In this document: one piece after another, positions 8,575-54,248 of the stretch
Layout of the letters: the number at the start of each line of letters is the position of its first letter
Position numbering within the stretch: position 1 is the stretch's first letter
NCBI GenBank assembly: GCA_902500805.1
Contig: CABVSA010000011.1
Location: 1-64,000 of the forward strand
Reading direction: 5' to 3'
From: an uncultured Nitrospira sp.
Lineage (GTDB): Bacteria; Nitrospirota; Nitrospiria; Nitrospirales; Nitrospiraceae
DNA length: 64,000 nt
Program-made: the position numbers and the translations under genes
The notes under the pieces: generated by a model
Databases searched by the model: none
Told to the model about the DNA's origin: nothing
The model's input: the letters and a program-made list of their open reading frames with translations, nothing else

Positions 8575-8955
8575 TTACTCGTCCCGTTCGAGATCGGTGA
8601 GAACCGATGTCAGCTTGACCAACTCGTCTGGAGCCATGCGCGAAAAGGCGAGTCCGAAGCTATTTGTACCGACCCACCGCACGATTGCTTCATCTACTCG
8701 TAACGGCCAGTCAAGACCTGGGATGTGGAGGCGACATTCGAATTTTGCGCCTTGCTCGACCTTCATCTCACTCTCAATCTTACAGCCGCCGGCAGAAATA
8801 TCGACCGTTCGTCCCTGTCCTTCCTGTTTATTCCCTGAAAACGTACTGCGAAACTGGGCGGTAAACCGCGGTTGAACTCGGCGCTCATCCGGCCCTGCCT
8901 GTTCCTGGGCAACTTCAACCGGTTTTGATTTGAAGAATGAACTCAGCTTTTTCAC
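8575..8955 (-). CDS. PilZ-domain protein (probable cyclic-di-GMP binding)
   Basis: 126 residues. The PilZ signature is complete: RRVQPRF (RxxxR) near residue 25 and DISAGG (D/NxSxxG) near residue 53. Together these bind cyclic-di-GMP in the family. The N-terminus is a short basic segment with no membrane anchor, so it is a single-domain adaptor. Its target is not evident from neighbours: pal lies upstream and the small acidic protein downstream. Confidence 0.85.
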   Translation of the reverse strand: MKKLSSFFKSKPVEVAQEQAGPDERRVQPRFTAQFRSTFSGNKQEGQGRTVDISAGGCKIESEMKVEQGAKFECRLHIPGLDWPLRVDEAIVRWVGTNSFGLAFSRMAPDELVKLTSVLTDLERDE

Positions 8956-9032
8956 AGGGACGATTCCTCATCAGAACCGCGTGACCAGCAGGATCAAGGA
9001 GTCGCGCGACACTCACTTCAAGACGCCGCTTC

Positions 9033-9674
9033 TTACTTCGTCGACAGCAATATGTGTCCTCGTCGATTTTGCTGATAGCAGGATTCCTGTCGCTCGCTGC
9101 AGAACGGTCGTTCCTTCCCATACGACACGATCGCGAGCTGATTGGGACTGACCCCTGATTCCTGCAAATAATTGCGAGCTGCTTTGGCACGCTTGTCGCC
9201 GAGGACCATGTTGTAGTCGCTCGTCCCCCGCTCATCACAATGGCCCTCTATTTTGAGCACAGCACCAGGATGATCTTTCAGATAGTGCGCATCGAGATTG
9301 AGCGCCTCCATGCCTGCTTCGGATAATGTCCATTGGTCATACCCGAAAAATACATCTTGCAACCCCGCTTCGACAGCAGCGCGCTCTTCTTTCGTCAACT
9401 CCGCTTGCTGCCGCCCCGGAAAGCTTGACGGGTTTAGACTCGTTGGATGTCCACCTTGTCCGCCCGACGAAAGGCGTTCCTCAACGGGATTCCGAGAAAA
9501 CCCCTTGAGTTCCCCACTTGAGCTTCCACCGGAAATGCTCGGAGCCTTTGAGCTGGTGCTTCCGGACCCCCCTTCGCTCTCGGACTGTACCCATTTCTTA
9601 CTACACCCCTGGTTCGACAAAAAAAGAAATCCCACAGCCACCACCACCCCCACCTTCATTACCACTCTGGTCAT
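9033..9674 (-). CDS. pal: Peptidoglycan-associated lipoprotein (Pal/OmpA family)
   Basis: Outer-membrane lipoprotein tethering the envelope to peptidoglycan. The start ATG 9674 is preceded by AGGAGAAAGG. The lipobox LSNQGC gives a lipidated cysteine at about residue 24, followed by a Ser/Gly-rich linker. A C-terminal OmpA-like domain has HYLKDHPGAVLKIEGHCDER, GTSDYNMVLGDKRAKAARNYL and SYGKERPFC. The last part has two extra cysteines (CSERQESC), which could form a disulfide. No tol genes adjoin it, so its membership of a Tol-Pal system rests on the family. Confidence 0.88.
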   Translation of the reverse strand: MTRVVMKVGVVVAVGFLFLSNQGCSKKWVQSESEGGSGSTSSKAPSISGGSSSGELKGFSRNPVEERLSSGGQGGHPTSLNPSSFPGRQQAELTKEERAAVEAGLQDVFFGYDQWTLSEAGMEALNLDAHYLKDHPGAVLKIEGHCDERGTSDYNMVLGDKRAKAARNYLQESGVSPNQLAIVSYGKERPFCSERQESCYQQNRRGHILLSTK

Positions 9675-10005
9675 AGCCTTTCTCCTCTTATGGCCTTCTA
9701 TACTCACAACTCAGCCCCGTCATTCATCACCACTTGAGGCAGTAATGATTTCAGCATGCGCCTTCGCTCTGCCTGCAAGCACAGTTATCGCCAATGATGA
9801 TAAAGCGATGCAGTAACAGGAGTTTAGCCGATTGCCCGCAGGATGCCTAACAATTTTTCATATCCAGCCGGATGACCGGTTCGGTAGGGAATGATCTCTC
9901 TAGAGGGATAGAATGGGATGGCTCGGAGAGAAGGAACCATTCGATTAATGAGGTACACACGCAGCAGTCGACGCAATCCACTATGCTGAGAGACCACCGT
10001 CCTGT
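9675..10005. other. Non-coding stretch between pal and a short membrane-peptide ORF
   Basis: No convincing gene on either strand: the open frames here have no ribosome sites and no family-like composition. It presumably holds the pal promoter, but no element stands out by eye. Confidence 0.4.
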
Positions 10006-10146
10006 TCAGCGAGAGCCGCTACGATCAGCCCAGCGGACAGGTCGCAACACGGCTCCCATGCCGGCGAGTGCGCAGATAAACAACAGCATGGCCAGAGCAA
10101 TCACCAGGAAAAATGCCGCCCTCATGTCGTGCAAAACAGGGATCAT
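10006..10146 (-). CDS. Short one-TM peptide (46 aa)
   Basis: A small reading frame from ATG 10146 to TGA 10006, preceded by a purine-rich site (GAGGAGGGACGAGG). It encodes 46 residues with one strong hydrophobic helix (AAFFLVIALAMLLFICAL) and a basic C-terminal tail, a typical small inner-membrane peptide. It lies 27 bases downstream of a short zinc-ribbon ORF on the same strand, so the two may be co-transcribed. No family recognised. Support comes from composition, ribosome site and pairing only. Confidence 0.5.
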   Translation of the reverse strand: MIPVLHDMRAAFFLVIALAMLLFICALAGMGAVLRPVRWADRSGSR

Positions 10147-49055: not shown

Positions 49056-49811
49056 TTATTGGGAATAGACGAGAAGCAGAAGGCCAAAAAGGATCACACA
49101 TCCCGCCCAGGCGACTTCCCATCGTTTCGTGGCACAAGGCGATATCCCGGAGAACGAGGAGGCCAAGCCTTTTGCCAATGCCGCGCCGATACCCACGATG
49201 GCTAATAATGAGTGCTGAAACTGGATCTTTGCGATAGCAGGATGATCCCCATGAGAGTGGACGAACAGCCAAAGCGAACCGGCCAATGTCGCAATGACCA
49301 GTGGCGCCGCCCACATCGGGTGGCGAACCCTACCCAACCGACGAAGTGTTTCACACAAAGCAACCAGTAACGCCATGAATCCATATGCCTTGTGCTCGAT
49401 GATCTCACGATCCTGACCGAAAAACGTCTCGCTAAAGCCAAGTGAGCCAATTGGCCAGGCATCATGGTCACTCCAGATGAGTACAAACCCACCCACGATG
49501 CCCAACGCACCGGGAAGAACAAGGCGAGTCCATAGCGGCAGCGGATACTGTAGCGCATAGCCCAACTCGGCAAGGCCGAATACTACATCGCAAAGGCCAG
49601 CAAAGCGATGGTTGAACTCTGAAAAGGCTGTCCCTTCAGGTGAACCCTCCCAACGCCCACTGGCCTGCCCCATTTGATGATTATCCGTCGCGATGGTTCG
49701 GTCCGACACACTGTGATGCCCTGATTGAGCTTGTGCGGGTTCAGCCGCCATCCCAGTGAACGGGAGCATGACGAATAGAAACGCGGACAATCGAGAGAGC
49801 AACAGCTTCAT
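49056..49811 (-). CDS. Multi-His polytopic membrane protein, paralog 1
   Basis: 251 residues: signal-like N-terminus, then about six membrane helices. Conserved with its neighbour are FSEFNHRFAGL, IWSDHDAWPIGSL, IIEHKAYG, RHPMWA and FVHSHGDHPAI. These histidines at helix ends suggest metal or haem binding. Not assigned; the layout is reminiscent of CopD-like membrane proteins but that is only a resemblance. Confidence 0.6.
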   Translation of the reverse strand: MKLLLSRLSAFLFVMLPFTGMAAEPAQAQSGHHSVSDRTIATDNHQMGQASGRWEGSPEGTAFSEFNHRFAGLCDVVFGLAELGYALQYPLPLWTRLVLPGALGIVGGFVLIWSDHDAWPIGSLGFSETFFGQDREIIEHKAYGFMALLVALCETLRRLGRVRHPMWAAPLVIATLAGSLWLFVHSHGDHPAIAKIQFQHSLLAIVGIGAALAKGLASSFSGISPCATKRWEVAWAGCVILFGLLLLVYSQ

Positions 49812-49873: not shown

Positions 49874-50650
49874 CTACTCAGAATACACGAGCAACTGAAA
49901 TCCCATGCCGATCACAAGGCCTGCCCAAACCAGCTCCCATCGTTTCGCCGTTTGAGGCGAGATTCCGGATGCCCACGCGACCATCGCACTCGAGACGGCA
50001 GCCCCAATACCGAAACTGCCGAGCACGGTGTGGTGCAACACAATCATGTGATTCCCTGGGTGATCTCCATGCGAATGGAAGAAAAGCAGCAGCGCTCCGC
50101 CCAGACCGAGAACAAGCAAGGGAATCGCCCACACAGGATGTCGAGCCCAGCTGATCCGACGGAGTGTCTCGCTCACCGCTGCGATGCCGGAAAAGACTCC
50201 GTAGAGTTTATGCTGGAGAATTTCCGGATCCTCCCCCGAGAACGTCTGCACGAAGGTGAGAGACCCGATCGGCCAAGCCTCGTGGTCGCTCCAGATCAGG
50301 AGGTACGTGCCGATCACACCGGGCAGCACCAGACGAGGCCACACAGGCAAGCGATACCGAAGCGCATGTCCCAACTCCGCCAAGCCAAACAATGGAACGA
50401 ACAGCCCGACGAAGCGATGATTAAATTCTGAGTAAGCGATCCCTTGTGTCGATCCCTCCCATTTGCCCTCATCGGGTTCGTTCTGGAGATTGTGTAGTGT
50501 GCCTGTGGCGACGGAGGCCAGGTGATGTTCAGAGGATGATTGGGCACGAGCATCTGCGCCCAGGAAAAACAGCGACGTCGTCAGCACCAAAACCAGAACC
50601 GGAGAAGCCCACTGCTTCACGTAACAGAACCGTCGACCGAATGGACCCAC
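49874..50650 (-). CDS. Multi-His polytopic membrane protein, paralog 2
   Basis: 258 residues, clearly homologous to the 49056-49811 product throughout: YSEFNHRFVGLFVPLFGLAE, IWSDHEAWPIGSL, ILQHKLYGVFS, RHPVWA, LFFHSHGDHPGN, and a common C-terminal KRWELVWAGLVI. It lies 62 bases upstream of paralog 1 on the same strand, so a tandem duplication inside one operon. Function unknown. Confidence 0.6.
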   Translation of the reverse strand: MGPFGRRFCYVKQWASPVLVLVLTTSLFFLGADARAQSSSEHHLASVATGTLHNLQNEPDEGKWEGSTQGIAYSEFNHRFVGLFVPLFGLAELGHALRYRLPVWPRLVLPGVIGTYLLIWSDHEAWPIGSLTFVQTFSGEDPEILQHKLYGVFSGIAAVSETLRRISWARHPVWAIPLLVLGLGGALLLFFHSHGDHPGNHMIVLHHTVLGSFGIGAAVSSAMVAWASGISPQTAKRWELVWAGLVIGMGFQLLVYSE

Positions 50651-50715: not shown

Positions 50716-51438
50716 TTACATAAACTTCATGAACTTGTCCTTGGCGTCATCCATCACCTGTGCCGTGATGGTCGCAAGCCCACGCTCCTTGGCCATTCGC
50801 TCCACCTCTTTACGGGCCATGGGACGGATGAAGTCAGGAATATTCTCCAACCGCTGCTCGGCTTCACGTGACCAGGTCATCCCTTCAGGAGAATAATTCT
50901 TGGAATCATCCATCACTTGCAGCGAGATCGTCGTCACCCCCTGCTTGCGCGCATAGCCCTCGACGCTCGCTTGCACCATCGGTTTCACGAATGCAGGAAG
51001 CCGCTCGAGTTTCTCCTTGGCATCAGCAGTCCACGTGAACTCAGAGGGTCCACCGTTCGCCGGCTTACCGGAGTTGGTCAGACCCATTTCTGCAACCATG
51101 GCGGAGAAGGGACAGCCACTTGCCTTCTCGGGCGCCTTTGCAGGCGACGCCTCCGTGGCCACCACGGCCGGTTCAGGAGAACTCGGCTTCGGCGCGGCGG
51201 CAACTTGGCCATTTCCCCCAAGCGTGCGAAGCCCTTCCATAGAGGCCGCTGGTTCTGACTTGGCCCCGAGTTTCAACCCCAACGAATTCATCATGTTCGT
51301 TTCGCCGGCATTGGTCACCATCGAGAATTTCGCGTTACAAGACGGACAGGCAAAGAAGACTCCGAGGGAACCCTCTTGCGGCTTTTCGACCTTCTCCAGA
51401 CTCATATAGGTTTCACAGTTCAGACAGACGAATTTCAT
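50716..51438 (-). CDS. Zinc-ribbon protein with two PCP_red-type domains
   Basis: 240 residues. An N-terminal ribbon (CLNCETYM ... FFACPSCNAKF) is followed by a low-complexity Ala/Pro linker and two helical units: DAKEKLERLPAFVKPMVQAS with QGVTTISLQVMDDSK, and REAEQRLENIPDFIRPMARK with RGLATITAQVMDDAK. A CPF motif (SGCPFSAM) sits before the first unit. Related to the repeats at 34973-35968. The second unit ends near the stop. Not assigned a function. Confidence 0.7.
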   Translation of the reverse strand: MKFVCLNCETYMSLEKVEKPQEGSLGVFFACPSCNAKFSMVTNAGETNMMNSLGLKLGAKSEPAASMEGLRTLGGNGQVAAAPKPSSPEPAVVATEASPAKAPEKASGCPFSAMVAEMGLTNSGKPANGGPSEFTWTADAKEKLERLPAFVKPMVQASVEGYARKQGVTTISLQVMDDSKNYSPEGMTWSREAEQRLENIPDFIRPMARKEVERMAKERGLATITAQVMDDAKDKFMKFM

Positions 51439-51666: not shown

Positions 51667-53454
51667 TCAAACCGATGGCGTCTCCGGCGTTGTCATTGTG
51701 GGCTCATCGTTTCCGAGCCACTGCTTATACTTCCTGTAGTGCTCGAGTTGCGCACTGCGCACCCAGTTTTCTCGCTGAATGCGCCCCCCAAAGTTGGGCA
51801 GGAGGAACTCGAATTTGTCGATGTCCGCCTGGCTCCAAGTCGCCACTTGGCTGAACCAGAAAACGCCCCGTTTGTGGAGAAACCGTTCTAACGCTGGCCC
51901 GACCCCGCGGATATGTTTCAAATCATCAGGTGACTCGGGGCCTGATGATCCCTCATCCAACTGCACCACGGCCTCGACGGCCTCGGCATAGTCCAGATCC
52001 CCAACTGATTCGCTGGTCATTTCAACAGGTATGTCTCCATTCTTGACGACAATCTGTTCAGCATGAGCCTCGATCCGCATCTTATCAACCTTCTGATCGA
52101 CCCGTGAAGATACGGCTTGAGTTTCAACAGTCTGCGCATGAACATCGGGGCTCTCATGCGGCGGTTCGCCCTCGCCGAGCCACTGCGCATACTTCCTATA
52201 GTGCTCGAGCTGCGCACTGCGTACCCAGTTTTCTCGCTGAATGCGCCCCCCAAAGTTGGGCAGGAGGAACTCGAATTTGTCGATGTCCGCCTGGCTCCAA
52301 GTCGCCACTTGGCTGAACCAGAAGACGCCCCGTTTGTGGAGAAACCGTTCTAACGCCAGCCCAACCCCGCGGAGGTGTTTCAAATCATCGGGCGACTCGG
52401 GACCTGCCAGTCCCTCATCCGGCTGCACCGCGGTCCTTGCATGGTCTGGCTCCCCCCTGTGTTCGCTCCCCTGAATGACCGGCAACTCCCTCTTCGTTTC
52501 ACTAGGAGTCTCGCCCTGCGTCCCGACGACCTTCTCACCGGCCTGCACAGACGACTCCCAAAGCTCTACGATCTTCGCACGAAGCTCGACAATCTCGGCC
52601 ACTTCGCCTTCCAACGCCTTGATCCGCGCCAGATGCTCCGGATTGTCGACTGGCCCCGCCCCGTTTTTTTCAATGGGAGGCTCGCTCTGCTTCTCATCTG
52701 CCATCCCCCCAGCCTGTCCCAACGCGTGCTGGAGCCCAGCAATCTGCGCACGAAGCTCGGCGATTTCGGCCACCCCGGCCTCTAACGCCGTGATCCGCGC
52801 CAGAGGTTCCGGACTGTCGACCGGCAGCTCTCCATTCTGCTCAGTGAGAGACTCGATGTTCTTCTCGGCGACCTTCTCTCCAATGTCCACGGACGCGGCC
52901 TGGAGCTCAGCAATCTGCACGCGAAGATCGTCGATGACAGCCACTTCGCCTTCTAACGCCTTGATCCGGTCCAGGTGCTCCGGAGCATCAATGGGGACCA
53001 CCACCCGCCCTTCACTACCCCTTTCCTCGGCCTGTGTAGAAACAGTTTGGAGTTGAATGATCTGCCCAAGTAAGCGAAGGATCAGAGCGACCTCGCTTTC
53101 CAACGCCTTAATTCTGGACAGATGCTCCGGATTGTCGACCGGCCGATCGACGACCTTCTCCACGGTCTTTTCAATCGGCACCTCCACCAGCTTCTCAACG
53201 ATCTTCTCAACCGGCACTTCAACCTGTTTGATCACCACCCGTTCGACCGGCACCTCCACTCGCTTCTCCACCGTTCGTACCTCCGGCGGTTGATTGGCGA
53301 GCTTGGTGAGCATGGTGACCTTGCTCGTGAGCCGTTCCACCTCCCGACGCCTGTCATCCATCACTGCCCCTAGCACCAGCCCCTTGATCCCCCACCCGAG
53401 GCACCCAGCTCCCACCACCGTCCCGAGCCAGCATGTCCAGTGCGTCGACATCAT
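51667..53454 (-). CDS. Membrane-anchored repeat protein with two helix-hairpin-helix-like modules
   Basis: 595 residues. One N-terminal transmembrane helix (TCWLGTVVGAGCLGWGIKGL), then VEVPVEK repeats, then four ~55-60-residue units of the form DNPEHLxRIKALExEVAxIxELR. Two copies of a module follow, LKHLRGVGLALERFLHKRG ... GGRIQRENWVRSAQLEHYRK (~352-430 and ~515-590), recalling the domain at the C-termini of some L21 and NuoE proteins. The modules are nearly identical at DNA level. Its start overlaps the OmpA-domain gene stop by 4 bases, so the pair is one unit. Confidence 0.65.
   Translation of the reverse strand: MMSTHWTCWLGTVVGAGCLGWGIKGLVLGAVMDDRRREVERLTSKVTMLTKLANQPPEVRTVEKRVEVPVERVVIKQVEVPVEKIVEKLVEVPIEKTVEKVVDRPVDNPEHLSRIKALESEVALILRLLGQIIQLQTVSTQAEERGSEGRVVVPIDAPEHLDRIKALEGEVAVIDDLRVQIAELQAASVDIGEKVAEKNIESLTEQNGELPVDSPEPLARITALEAGVAEIAELRAQIAGLQHALGQAGGMADEKQSEPPIEKNGAGPVDNPEHLARIKALEGEVAEIVELRAKIVELWESSVQAGEKVVGTQGETPSETKRELPVIQGSEHRGEPDHARTAVQPDEGLAGPESPDDLKHLRGVGLALERFLHKRGVFWFSQVATWSQADIDKFEFLLPNFGGRIQRENWVRSAQLEHYRKYAQWLGEGEPPHESPDVHAQTVETQAVSSRVDQKVDKMRIEAHAEQIVVKNGDIPVEMTSESVGDLDYAEAVEAVVQLDEGSSGPESPDDLKHIRGVGPALERFLHKRGVFWFSQVATWSQADIDKFEFLLPNFGGRIQRENWVRSAQLEHYRKYKQWLGNDEPTMTTPETPSV
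51714..51967. repeat. Intragenic direct repeat, copy 1 (about 254 bases, offset 462)
   Basis: Aligns with 52176-52429 with only scattered changes; the offset of 462 bases (154 codons) keeps the frame. It encodes the second helix-hairpin-helix-like module of the repeat protein. Confidence 0.7.
52176..52429. repeat. Intragenic direct repeat, copy 2
   Basis: Partner of 51714-51967. It encodes the first module. High DNA identity indicates a recent duplication or gene conversion. Confidence 0.7.
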
Positions 53455-54032
53455 GGCTCCTCCCCCTTGGTTCCAATGGAGAATTCGATCTGCTGGTGTG
53501 GCTCACGCGCCTCATCGGTCGAACTGTCAGTGATCGGTTGTGATGCTCCATATCCTGTGGCAATCAGACGATCGGCAACAATCCCTTTTGAGATCAGATA
53601 CTCGACGACGGCCTTAGCCCGCTGTTCCGAAAGCAACCGATTCGCGTGCTCCGGTCCGACGCCGTCTGTATGGCCGGCAACTTCAAAGACACTCGCGGGA
53701 TCTTCTTGTAAAATCGCGGCCACGCTATTCAGGACAGCTTTCCCCTCTGGGACCAGCAGGGCGCTGTTCATTCGAAACATCATCGCAGTCCCCACCAACA
53801 GCTCATCGATCTTTTTTTTCAGCACAACTGACGTGGAGACCGGCGGCACTGGTGGTGGCGATAACGGCGGCTCAATAAGCCTCTGGACCGGCGGAGGAGT
53901 TTCAGACGGGTTCTGCAATGCAACCGGAGGAGATGACGTCACCGCCCCTTTACCACAAAAGAAGAATGTCGCACCAAGGATGAATACCCCGAGGAATACC
54001 AAGAACGGGTCTTTACCCTGCATGAACGTCAC
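53451..54032 (-). CDS. OmpA-domain envelope protein
   Basis: 193 residues. N-terminal membrane segment (DPFLVFLGVFILGATFFFC), a proline-rich linker (LIEPPLSPPPVPPVSTS), then an OmpA C-terminal domain (SVFEVAGHTDGVGPEHANRL, EQRAKAVVEYL, ATGYGASQPITD) that binds peptidoglycan. The Cys in FFFCGKG could be lipidated or not; the spacing fits a lipobox only loosely. Upstream partner of the 51667-53454 protein. Confidence 0.8.
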   Translation of the reverse strand: MTFMQGKDPFLVFLGVFILGATFFFCGKGAVTSSPPVALQNPSETPPPVQRLIEPPLSPPPVPPVSTSVVLKKKIDELLVGTAMMFRMNSALLVPEGKAVLNSVAAILQEDPASVFEVAGHTDGVGPEHANRLLSEQRAKAVVEYLISKGIVADRLIATGYGASQPITDSSTDEAREPHQQIEFSIGTKGEEP

Positions 54033-54248
54033 TTTAGCCTAAGGAGAATAAATGAGTGCGTCACAACAGAATAGTGGTATTAGACAGGGCCGTCAAGAGG
54101 TCGGCCTTGTGCCATCATCTGATAGGCAGGAGACTCGCGTCCTGGCGGTGTCCCACGGACGGTGGATTGGTGCCACGTCTTGTTTCGCGCAGCCTGATGA
54201 GGATGCCCACAACCTTTCCCCCGTTGTCGAGGGAATGAACGCCAGGCG

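What the first reader, a model, noticed from the sequence alone, without database searches (positions are those of the whole stretch)
51667..54032. Possible new envelope module: OmpA-domain protein plus an anchored repeat protein with duplicated HhH-like domains
Both proteins have one N-terminal membrane segment and are coupled by a 4-base overlap. The larger one combines VEVPVEK repeats, four ~55-residue coiled units and two copies of a domain normally found on cytoplasmic proteins. This combination is new to me and suggests a scaffold joining the inner membrane to peptidoglycan.
Basis: inference. Interest (0 to 1): 0.55.

Follow-up and report, generated by a model that had tools for sequence, protein, structure and literature searches.

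The report
Conserved trans-membrane wall-tether gene pair
Two neighbouring genes of nitrite-oxidising Nitrospira-type bacteria appear to make a tether that grips the cell wall outside the inner membrane and reaches into the cell with a head domain that, in another bacterium, sticks to DNA.

Summary
The 193-aa OmpA-domain protein and the 595-aa repeat protein overlap by 4 nt, and the repeats are as described (two HhH domains, 71 of 74 residues identical). The pair is strongly conserved. In 76 named relatives, 50 of 52 membrane-anchored HhH proteins have an OmpA gene directly upstream (-4 to +14 nt). The window locus is a genus-level paralogue of an older pair found across the Nitrospira family: a BON-OmpA protein resembling Mycobacterium Rv0899, plus a TM-coiled-coil-HhH protein.

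The proposed topology needs correction. The HhH protein's membrane segment has no K/R before it and several after it, and a sister HhH protein has no membrane segment at all. The HhH heads are therefore most likely in the cytoplasm, while the OmpA half keeps the residues known to bind peptidoglycan. Each HhH domain matches the C-terminal domain of the phasin PhaH, reported to bind DNA nonspecifically.

Best reading: a trans-envelope tether (wall, inner membrane, cytoplasmic coiled coil, HhH head), possibly holding the nucleoid. Topology, PG binding, partner contact and DNA binding are inferred, not shown. Natural fusions lacking the OmpA domain, and a GhG-to-GhD change in one genus, count against parts of this.

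The parts
53451..54032 (-). ompA-type gene, 193 aa; N-terminal TM, proline-rich linker, OmpA domain
   Evidence: closest homologues
53952..54008 (-). transmembrane segment of the OmpA protein (residues 9-27)
   Evidence: hydropathy, sequence itself
53475..53780 (-). OmpA domain (residues 85-186) with D123 and R138, at the 15-residue spacing of the diaminopimelate-binding D271/R286 of A. baumannii OmpA
   Evidence: dN/dS 0.14-0.29
53451..53454 (-). ATGA overlap of the two reading frames
   Evidence: -4 spacing also in most type A pairs
51667..53454 (-). HhH gene, 595 aa: N-terminal TM, VEVP repeats, four coil units, two HhH domains
53362..53439 (-). transmembrane segment of the HhH protein (residues 6-31), W/C/G-rich and nearly invariant; no K/R before it, DDRRRE after it
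53131..53277 (-). VEVPVE-type repeats (residues 60-108)
   Evidence: dN/dS 0.15-0.17
52477..53142 (-). four coiled-coil units of about 50-57 residues (three in register at 52477, 52648 and 52819; a fourth at about 52990-53142)
   Evidence: helices in the low-confidence model
52174..52395 (-). HhH domain copy 1 (residues 354-427)
51712..51933 (-). HhH domain copy 2 (residues 508-581), under the strongest purifying selection in the protein (dN/dS 0.025-0.06)
54068..54096 (-). promoter-like site upstream of the ompA gene (TTGACG-17-TATTCT), consensus match only

Best explanation
The two genes encode a trans-envelope tether. The OmpA protein sits in the inner membrane with its C-terminal domain in the periplasm, bound to peptidoglycan. 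The HhH protein sits in the same membrane the other way round (N-terminus out), so its VEVP stalk, coiled-coil units and HhH heads project into the cytoplasm. The two are taken to pair through their conserved membrane segments, giving a link wall - membrane - cytoplasmic rod - HhH head. The heads most likely bind DNA nonspecifically, as the same domain type does in Caulobacter PhaH, so that the nucleoid is loosely held to the cell wall; one to three or more heads per rod would tune avidity. Shown: the genes, their conservation, the domain matches and selection. Inferred: topology (strong), PG binding (strong), pairing of the proteins (moderate), DNA as the ligand (moderate to weak).
For: Pair conservation: 50 of 52 TM-bearing HhH ORFs in 76 loci have OmpA at -4 to +14 nt upstream; 23 type A pairs examined are at -55 to +5 nt, 16 of them at -4; the same pair occurs in a MAG labelled Deltaproteobacteria (L168). 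Family-wide spread: 110 of 175 genomes match the anchored-HhH profile. Topology: type A, 21 distinct N-termini, 0 K/R before the TM and at least 3 in the 20 residues after; type B, 63, mean 0.08 before and 2.8 after; a TM-less sister whose N-terminus resembles the post-TM stretch; protein-O's HhH follows a TM hairpin whose Cys10 and Cys59 ends are on the cytoplasmic side. PG: 106 of 114 distinct OmpA domains keep the D...R pattern, residues critical for diaminopimelate binding in A. baumannii. DNA: isolated HhH copies match PhaH's C-terminal domain at E=6e-11 and 7.5e-10; PhaH is reported to bind DNA nonspecifically through an HhH domain; mean net charge about +4; weak profile matches to the HhH region of DNA polymerase IV/Dbh, E about 0.007-0.05. 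Coupling: in-frame natural fusions of the OmpA protein's TM to the HhH protein's TM. Constraint: dN/dS 0.025-0.06 in HhH2, 0.10-0.13 in HhH1, against 0.34-0.67 in the linker.
Against: The fused forms (G004, G067, probably G075) have lost the OmpA domain, so the wall-binding half of this locus is dispensable there. A Gammaproteobacteria MAG has the anchored HhH protein with no OmpA beside it (L201). The same HhH type sits on NuoE, ribosomal L21 and S2 and on RC-LH1 protein-O, where DNA tethering is not an obvious need, and the aligned part of protein-O's domain has net charge -3. In genus g2 (L117, L118, L121) the second glycine of the HhH hairpin is Asp, unfavourable for phosphate contact. The pair is absent from many genomes of the same genus (35 of 79 without a match). 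No experiment, and no confident structure: pLDDT 46.7 and 44.7.
Confidence: 0.4

Rival explanations
1. A cortical scaffold or shape complex, like Csd5-CcmA of Helicobacter: same topology, but the HhH heads and coiled coils bind proteins (each other, bactofilins or cell-wall synthesis enzymes) rather than DNA, and the wall link patterns cell shape.
For: Csd5 spans the membrane, binds PG with an SH3 domain and a bactofilin in the cytoplasm (passages). Six bactofilin genes over the Pfam cut-off in the window's own genome. The TM-less sisters are long coiled-coil proteins (722-1129 aa in those with an MSTL start). HhH of this type is attached to unrelated cytoplasmic complexes.
Against: No bactofilin or cell-wall enzyme gene was recognised beside the pair in the loci listed (by eye, not by a family search); type B neighbours are mostly purH/purD (named from recalled sequence features). 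The only HhH of this type for which I found a reported ligand binds DNA.
Confidence: 0.3
2. One reading: both proteins face the periplasm, and the HhH and coil domains form an exported scaffold between inner membrane and peptidoglycan.
For: OmpA domain with PG-binding residues; HhH domains can work outside cells, e.g. the Thioalkalivibrio DNase (PMC4777378, listing and start of abstract only; that it is extracellular is recalled).
Against: Charge asymmetry in 84 distinct N-termini, TM-less sister protein and the protein-O precedent.
Confidence: 0.08
3. A membrane organiser of respiratory complexes: the HhH heads dock a partner shared by HhH-bearing NuoE, L21, S2 and protein-O, fixing such assemblies to the wall.
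For: The best family match of the HhH domain is the NuoE C-terminal extension (E=1.1e-17); PDB matches are complex I and RC-LH1 subunits.
Against: In the window's genome the HhH search found only this envelope system (3 places), so there is no HhH-bearing NuoE or L21 to share a partner with; no bioenergetic gene was recognised beside the pair in the loci listed.
Confidence: 0.1
4. Two independent envelope proteins that merely share a transcript, without physical contact.
For: OmpA domain lost in the fused forms; HhH protein without OmpA in L201.
Against: Pairing kept in 50 of 52 cases and at two separate loci; in-frame TM-TM fusions.
Confidence: 0.12

Closest known systems
PhaH phasin of Caulobacter crescentus (NF045508)
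   Same: C-terminal HhH domain of the same sequence type; reported to bind DNA nonspecifically and place PHB granules on the nucleoid (review PMC13052382, passages)
   Different: PhaH is a soluble granule protein; the N-terminal phasin part is not matched, and scores are far below the family cut-off
Rv0899/ArfA (OmpATb) of Mycobacterium tuberculosis (PDB 2l26)
   Same: An alignment dominated by the type B OmpA partner (13 of 17 rows) matches 2l26 over positions 29-287 of 292 (E=2.8e-35)
   Different: The window's own OmpA protein has no BON part; no HhH partner is known to me for Rv0899 (recalled)
Protein-O of the Dinoroseobacter shibae RC-LH1 complex (PDB 8yy9)
   Same: N-terminal membrane helices followed by a cytoplasmic-side HhH domain
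   Different: Two helices, no coiled coil, no OmpA partner, sits between RC and LH1; function unknown according to its authors
Csd5-CcmA helical-shape complex of Helicobacter pylori
   Same: Links peptidoglycan to a cytoplasmic assembly across the inner membrane
   Different: Unrelated domains (SH3, bactofilin); one polypeptide spans the membrane; no HhH
NuoE and ribosomal L21/S2 with HhH C-terminal extensions (PRK12373, PRK12278, PRK12311)
   Same: Same HhH domain type
   Different: Only the extension matches; soluble or complex-bound proteins without TM or coil

Membership tests
OmpA C-terminal-like peptidoglycan-binding domain (PF00691) | profile match over the curated cut-off | tested here: met
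   76.8 bits against 27.2
OmpA C-terminal-like peptidoglycan-binding domain (PF00691) | Asp and Arg that contact diaminopimelate | tested here: met
   D123 and R138 in the window protein; pattern in 106 of 114 distinct domains; role in A. baumannii
OmpA C-terminal-like peptidoglycan-binding domain (PF00691) | actual peptidoglycan binding | not testable with these tools
   needs pull-down with sacculi
Rv0899/ArfA type (TM-BON-OmpA) | BON-type region before the OmpA domain in the window protein | tested here: not met
   no BON match in the window protein; type B partners only approach the Pfam cut-offs (23.0 against 24.1 bits) but their alignment matches 2l26 along its length
PhaH phasin | C-terminal HhH domain of this type | tested here: met
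   positions 171-229 of 234, 42.9 and 39.4 bits for the two copies
PhaH phasin | N-terminal granule-binding part and score over the cut-off of 250 bits | tested here: not met
   79.8 bits for the whole protein, best stretch matching 110-229 only
HhH DNA-binding superfamily | hairpin glycines (GhG) | tested here: inconclusive
   both glycines invariant in type A; second one is Asp in three g2 sequences; Pfam HHH_5 below its cut-off (19.9 against 27)
HhH DNA-binding superfamily | DNA binding by this protein | not testable with these tools
   needs gel-shift or nucleoid co-localisation
Csd5-type trans-envelope shape complex | linked bactofilin partner | tested here: inconclusive
   six bactofilin matches in the genome, none on the window's contig C11 or on C80/C97

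The most novel reading that the evidence does not exclude
A bacterial counterpart of the eukaryotic LINC idea: a two-protein chain that ties the nucleoid mechanically to the peptidoglycan wall across the inner membrane, with PhaH-type DNA-binding heads on a membrane-anchored coiled coil and an OmpA partner on the wall side, duplicated and re-tuned (1 to 3 or more heads) within one genus of Nitrospira-type bacteria.
Probability: 0.3. Interest if true: 0.85.

Novelty: new variant of a known kind. Interest (0 to 1): 0.6.

Why it matters
No described system, in the searches made here, joins peptidoglycan, inner membrane and a DNA-binding-type head in a dedicated two-gene unit. If the heads bind DNA, this gives a direct, testable physical link between chromosome and cell wall in bacteria that matter for nitrification. 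If they bind protein, it is still a conserved, unnamed trans-envelope scaffold spread through a whole family.

Tried and rejected
AlphaFold2 on the natural fusion and on the window HhH protein gave mean pLDDT 46.7 and 44.7, so no fold search was run: a low-confidence model gives meaningless matches. Pfam hits of the HhH protein to CHASE3, Mito_fiss_reg and the like are below cut-off and fall outside the HhH domains; many weak Pfam, SMC and lamin/tropomyosin matches of the type B proteins are ordinary coiled-coil noise. An alveolin-type match (IMCp, PF12314, 24.0 bits against 21.1) appears only in the short variant L079, not in the window protein; the literature search on bacterial alveolins gave nothing usable. 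The nesting of type A inside type B genomes was typed by hand and is not independent, because the A2 profile also matches type A heads; it is not used. The coil-unit comparison was out of register and is not used. In one search the type A 'before TM' count covers only the few residues before the conserved W; for the two loci whose longest ORF begins 17 codons earlier (L041, L050) I assume the conserved ATG that restores the -4 spacing. The charge comparison used only the aligned part of protein-O. HMMs used to count pairs were built from these proteins themselves, so they find this type and may miss others.

Novelty searches: (PMC open-licence papers only) gave no paper that describes the OmpA-HhH pair, judged from titles and abstract starts, plus passages in PMC13052382 and PMC7806268. 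The original PhaH paper is not held; what is said of PhaH rests on passages of the review PMC13052382. Other papers: PMC12079452, passages and section 2.3; PMC6572160, passages; PMC9507126, passages; PMC4777378, listing only.

Full report
OBSERVATION. The two ORFs lie on the minus strand, at 53451-54032 (193 aa) and 51667-53454 (595 aa), and share four bases. The smaller has one hydrophobic N-terminal stretch and an OmpA domain (PF00691, E=1.7e-21). The larger has an N-terminal membrane segment, VEVP(V/I)E repeats, coil units (three of 171 nt in register plus a fourth sharing the core) and two HhH domains that agree in 71 of 74 residues, against at most 19 of 74 in 100 shuffles.

WHAT THE HhH DOMAIN IS. 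Pfam HHH_5 is only suggestive (19.9 bits, cut-off 27). NCBIfam places the domain with the C-terminal extensions of NuoE, ribosomal L21 and S2 and the phasin PhaH. The two 74-residue copies on their own match positions 171-229 of the 234-position PhaH model (E=6e-11 and 7.5e-10). Sequence relatives in the PDB are the O chain of the Dinoroseobacter RC-LH1 complex (8yy9) and a complex I subunit (9wqv). In the RC-LH1 paper (section 2.3 read) the authors describe two N-terminal membrane helices with Cys10 and Cys59 on the cytoplasmic side and a flexible C-terminal domain of unknown function; the HhH follows that cytoplasmic end. A review (passages) states that PhaH binds DNA nonspecifically through its HhH domain and so sets PHB granules on the nucleoid; the primary paper could not be read.

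CONSERVATION OF THE PAIR. In the window's genus 44 of 79 genomes match the HhH protein at E<=1e-5; the weaker of these matches are to the second system described next. Among 23 type A pairs for which both ORFs were laid out, 16 have the 4-base overlap, 4 a 5-base gap, 1 a 1-base overlap, and 2 a 55-base overlap that becomes 4 at the conserved start codon. The upstream neighbour in the window and in G004 is a cysN-like gene (name recalled from sequence). The own genome carries a second system (contigs C80 and C97): a coiled-coil-HhH protein without membrane segment, an OmpA protein with an extra BON-like region, and a TM-coil-HhH protein. This 'type B' pair is the widespread one. Its anchored HhH profile matches 110 of 175 genomes of the family (80 of 114 of good quality; the profile also picks up type A heads) and, with a single-sequence query, 55 of 295 sampled from the phylum, all 55 in this family. 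A scan of named genomes gave 76 loci, nearly all labelled Nitrospira or Nitrospirae, including Candidatus Nitrospira defluvii (FP929003.1). Of 52 TM-bearing HhH ORFs in them, 50 have an OmpA gene directly upstream (-4 nt 21 times, +4 17, +14 7, +3 5). The two exceptions are L170, cut by the contig end, and L201, a Gammaproteobacteria MAG with the HhH protein alone. A MAG labelled Deltaproteobacteria (L168) has the full pair. Of the 76 loci, 2 gave no HhH ORF, and 37 further HhH ORFs have no membrane segment, 15 of them with a complete-looking MSTL start, the rest mostly cut by contig ends or masked stretches.

The OmpA alignment, 13 type B and 4 type A rows, matches Rv0899 of M. tuberculosis (2l26) over positions 29-287 of 292 at E=2.8e-35, so the type B partner is of the ArfA/OmpATb kind; the window's protein has lost, or never had, that BON-like part.

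TOPOLOGY. In 21 distinct type A N-termini there is no K/R before the membrane segment and 3 or more in the 20 residues after it; in 63 type B N-termini the means are 0.08 and 2.8. By the positive-inside rule this is N-out/C-in. Fifteen sister proteins with an MSTL start have no membrane segment at all and begin with sequence like the post-membrane part of the anchored ones, which fits a cytoplasmic coiled coil shared by both. The OmpA half must be periplasmic to meet its ligand: 106 of 114 distinct OmpA domains keep the Asp and Arg at 15-residue spacing, the pair shown critical for diaminopimelate binding in A. baumannii OmpA (D271, R286; abstract and introduction passages of PMC6572160). Of the other 8, 6 did not fit the pattern, one has Gly (G064) and one Glu for the Asp.

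COUPLING. In G004 and G067 the OmpA gene's first 66 or so codons (TM and linker) are fused in frame to the HhH gene and the OmpA domain is gone; G075 shows an ORF of the same build, whose junction I did not read residue by residue. This makes a two-helix hairpin followed by HhH, the build seen in protein-O. It supports opposite orientation and proximity of the two membrane segments, but it also shows that the wall-binding domain of this locus can be lost.

SELECTION AND EVOLUTION. Against three relatives, dN/dS is 0.025-0.06 in HhH2, 0.10-0.13 in HhH1, 0.08-0.24 in the TM, about 0.15-0.17 in the VEVP stretch, 0.14-0.29 in the OmpA domain, 0.32-0.41 in the coil and 0.34-0.67 in the linker between the heads. 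The window's two heads are closer to each other (94.4% of nucleotides) than to any head compared from another genome (at most 91.2%, 12 genomes in the comparison), so they are recent or homogenised. Head number runs from 1 (G004, G013) to 3 (for example G005, G032, G078).

MECHANISM. Putting these together, the pair looks like a tether across the inner membrane: wall-bound OmpA outside, coiled coil with HhH heads inside. DNA is the best-supported ligand because the only HhH of this type with a reported ligand that I found binds DNA and the heads are basic (mean +4). Against this, the same domain sits on NuoE, L21, S2 and protein-O, the aligned protein-O part is acidic (-3), and three g2 sequences replace the second hairpin glycine by Asp. 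A shape or cortical scaffold in the manner of Csd5-CcmA is the main rival, and six bactofilin matches are present in the genome, though none lies on the window's contig or on C80 or C97. Structure prediction was too poor to help.

VERDICT.

Noticed in passing
window 50716-51438 (-): The gene downstream of the pair encodes two stretches of the PCP_red domain (C-terminal domain of BchB-type reductases, PF08369 E=1.1e-32) after a cysteine-bearing start, without the rest of the enzyme.
   Followed up: no
window 49056-49811 and 49874-50650 (-): Two adjacent, similar-looking membrane proteins of about 250 aa with no Pfam match above cut-off.
   Followed up: no
L063 (G004), L078 (G067), L061 (G075): In-frame natural fusion of the OmpA protein's TM to the HhH protein with loss of the OmpA domain.
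   Followed up: partly
L037 11602-16853, L042, L043, L047 and others: Second system with a TM-less coiled-coil-HhH protein (722-1129 aa where it starts MSTL) upstream of the BON-OmpA gene; seen in the window's genus, not in the loci of other genera laid out.
   Followed up: partly
L040 about 8838-10029 and L062: A third, more diverged OmpA copy in G001 and G063 with only fragments of an HhH partner, in a stretch of G001 with transposase-like genes.
   Followed up: no
L079 61-798: A short 245-aa variant (TM, one HhH) with an alveolin-type IMCp match over the cut-off (24.0 against 21.1 bits).
   Followed up: no
own genome C190, C46, C82, C5, C25: Six bactofilin matches over the cut-off in the window's genome.
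   Followed up: no
window 51713-51971 and 52175-52433: The two HhH copies are more alike to each other than to orthologues, suggesting recent duplication or gene conversion inside the gene.
   Followed up: yes
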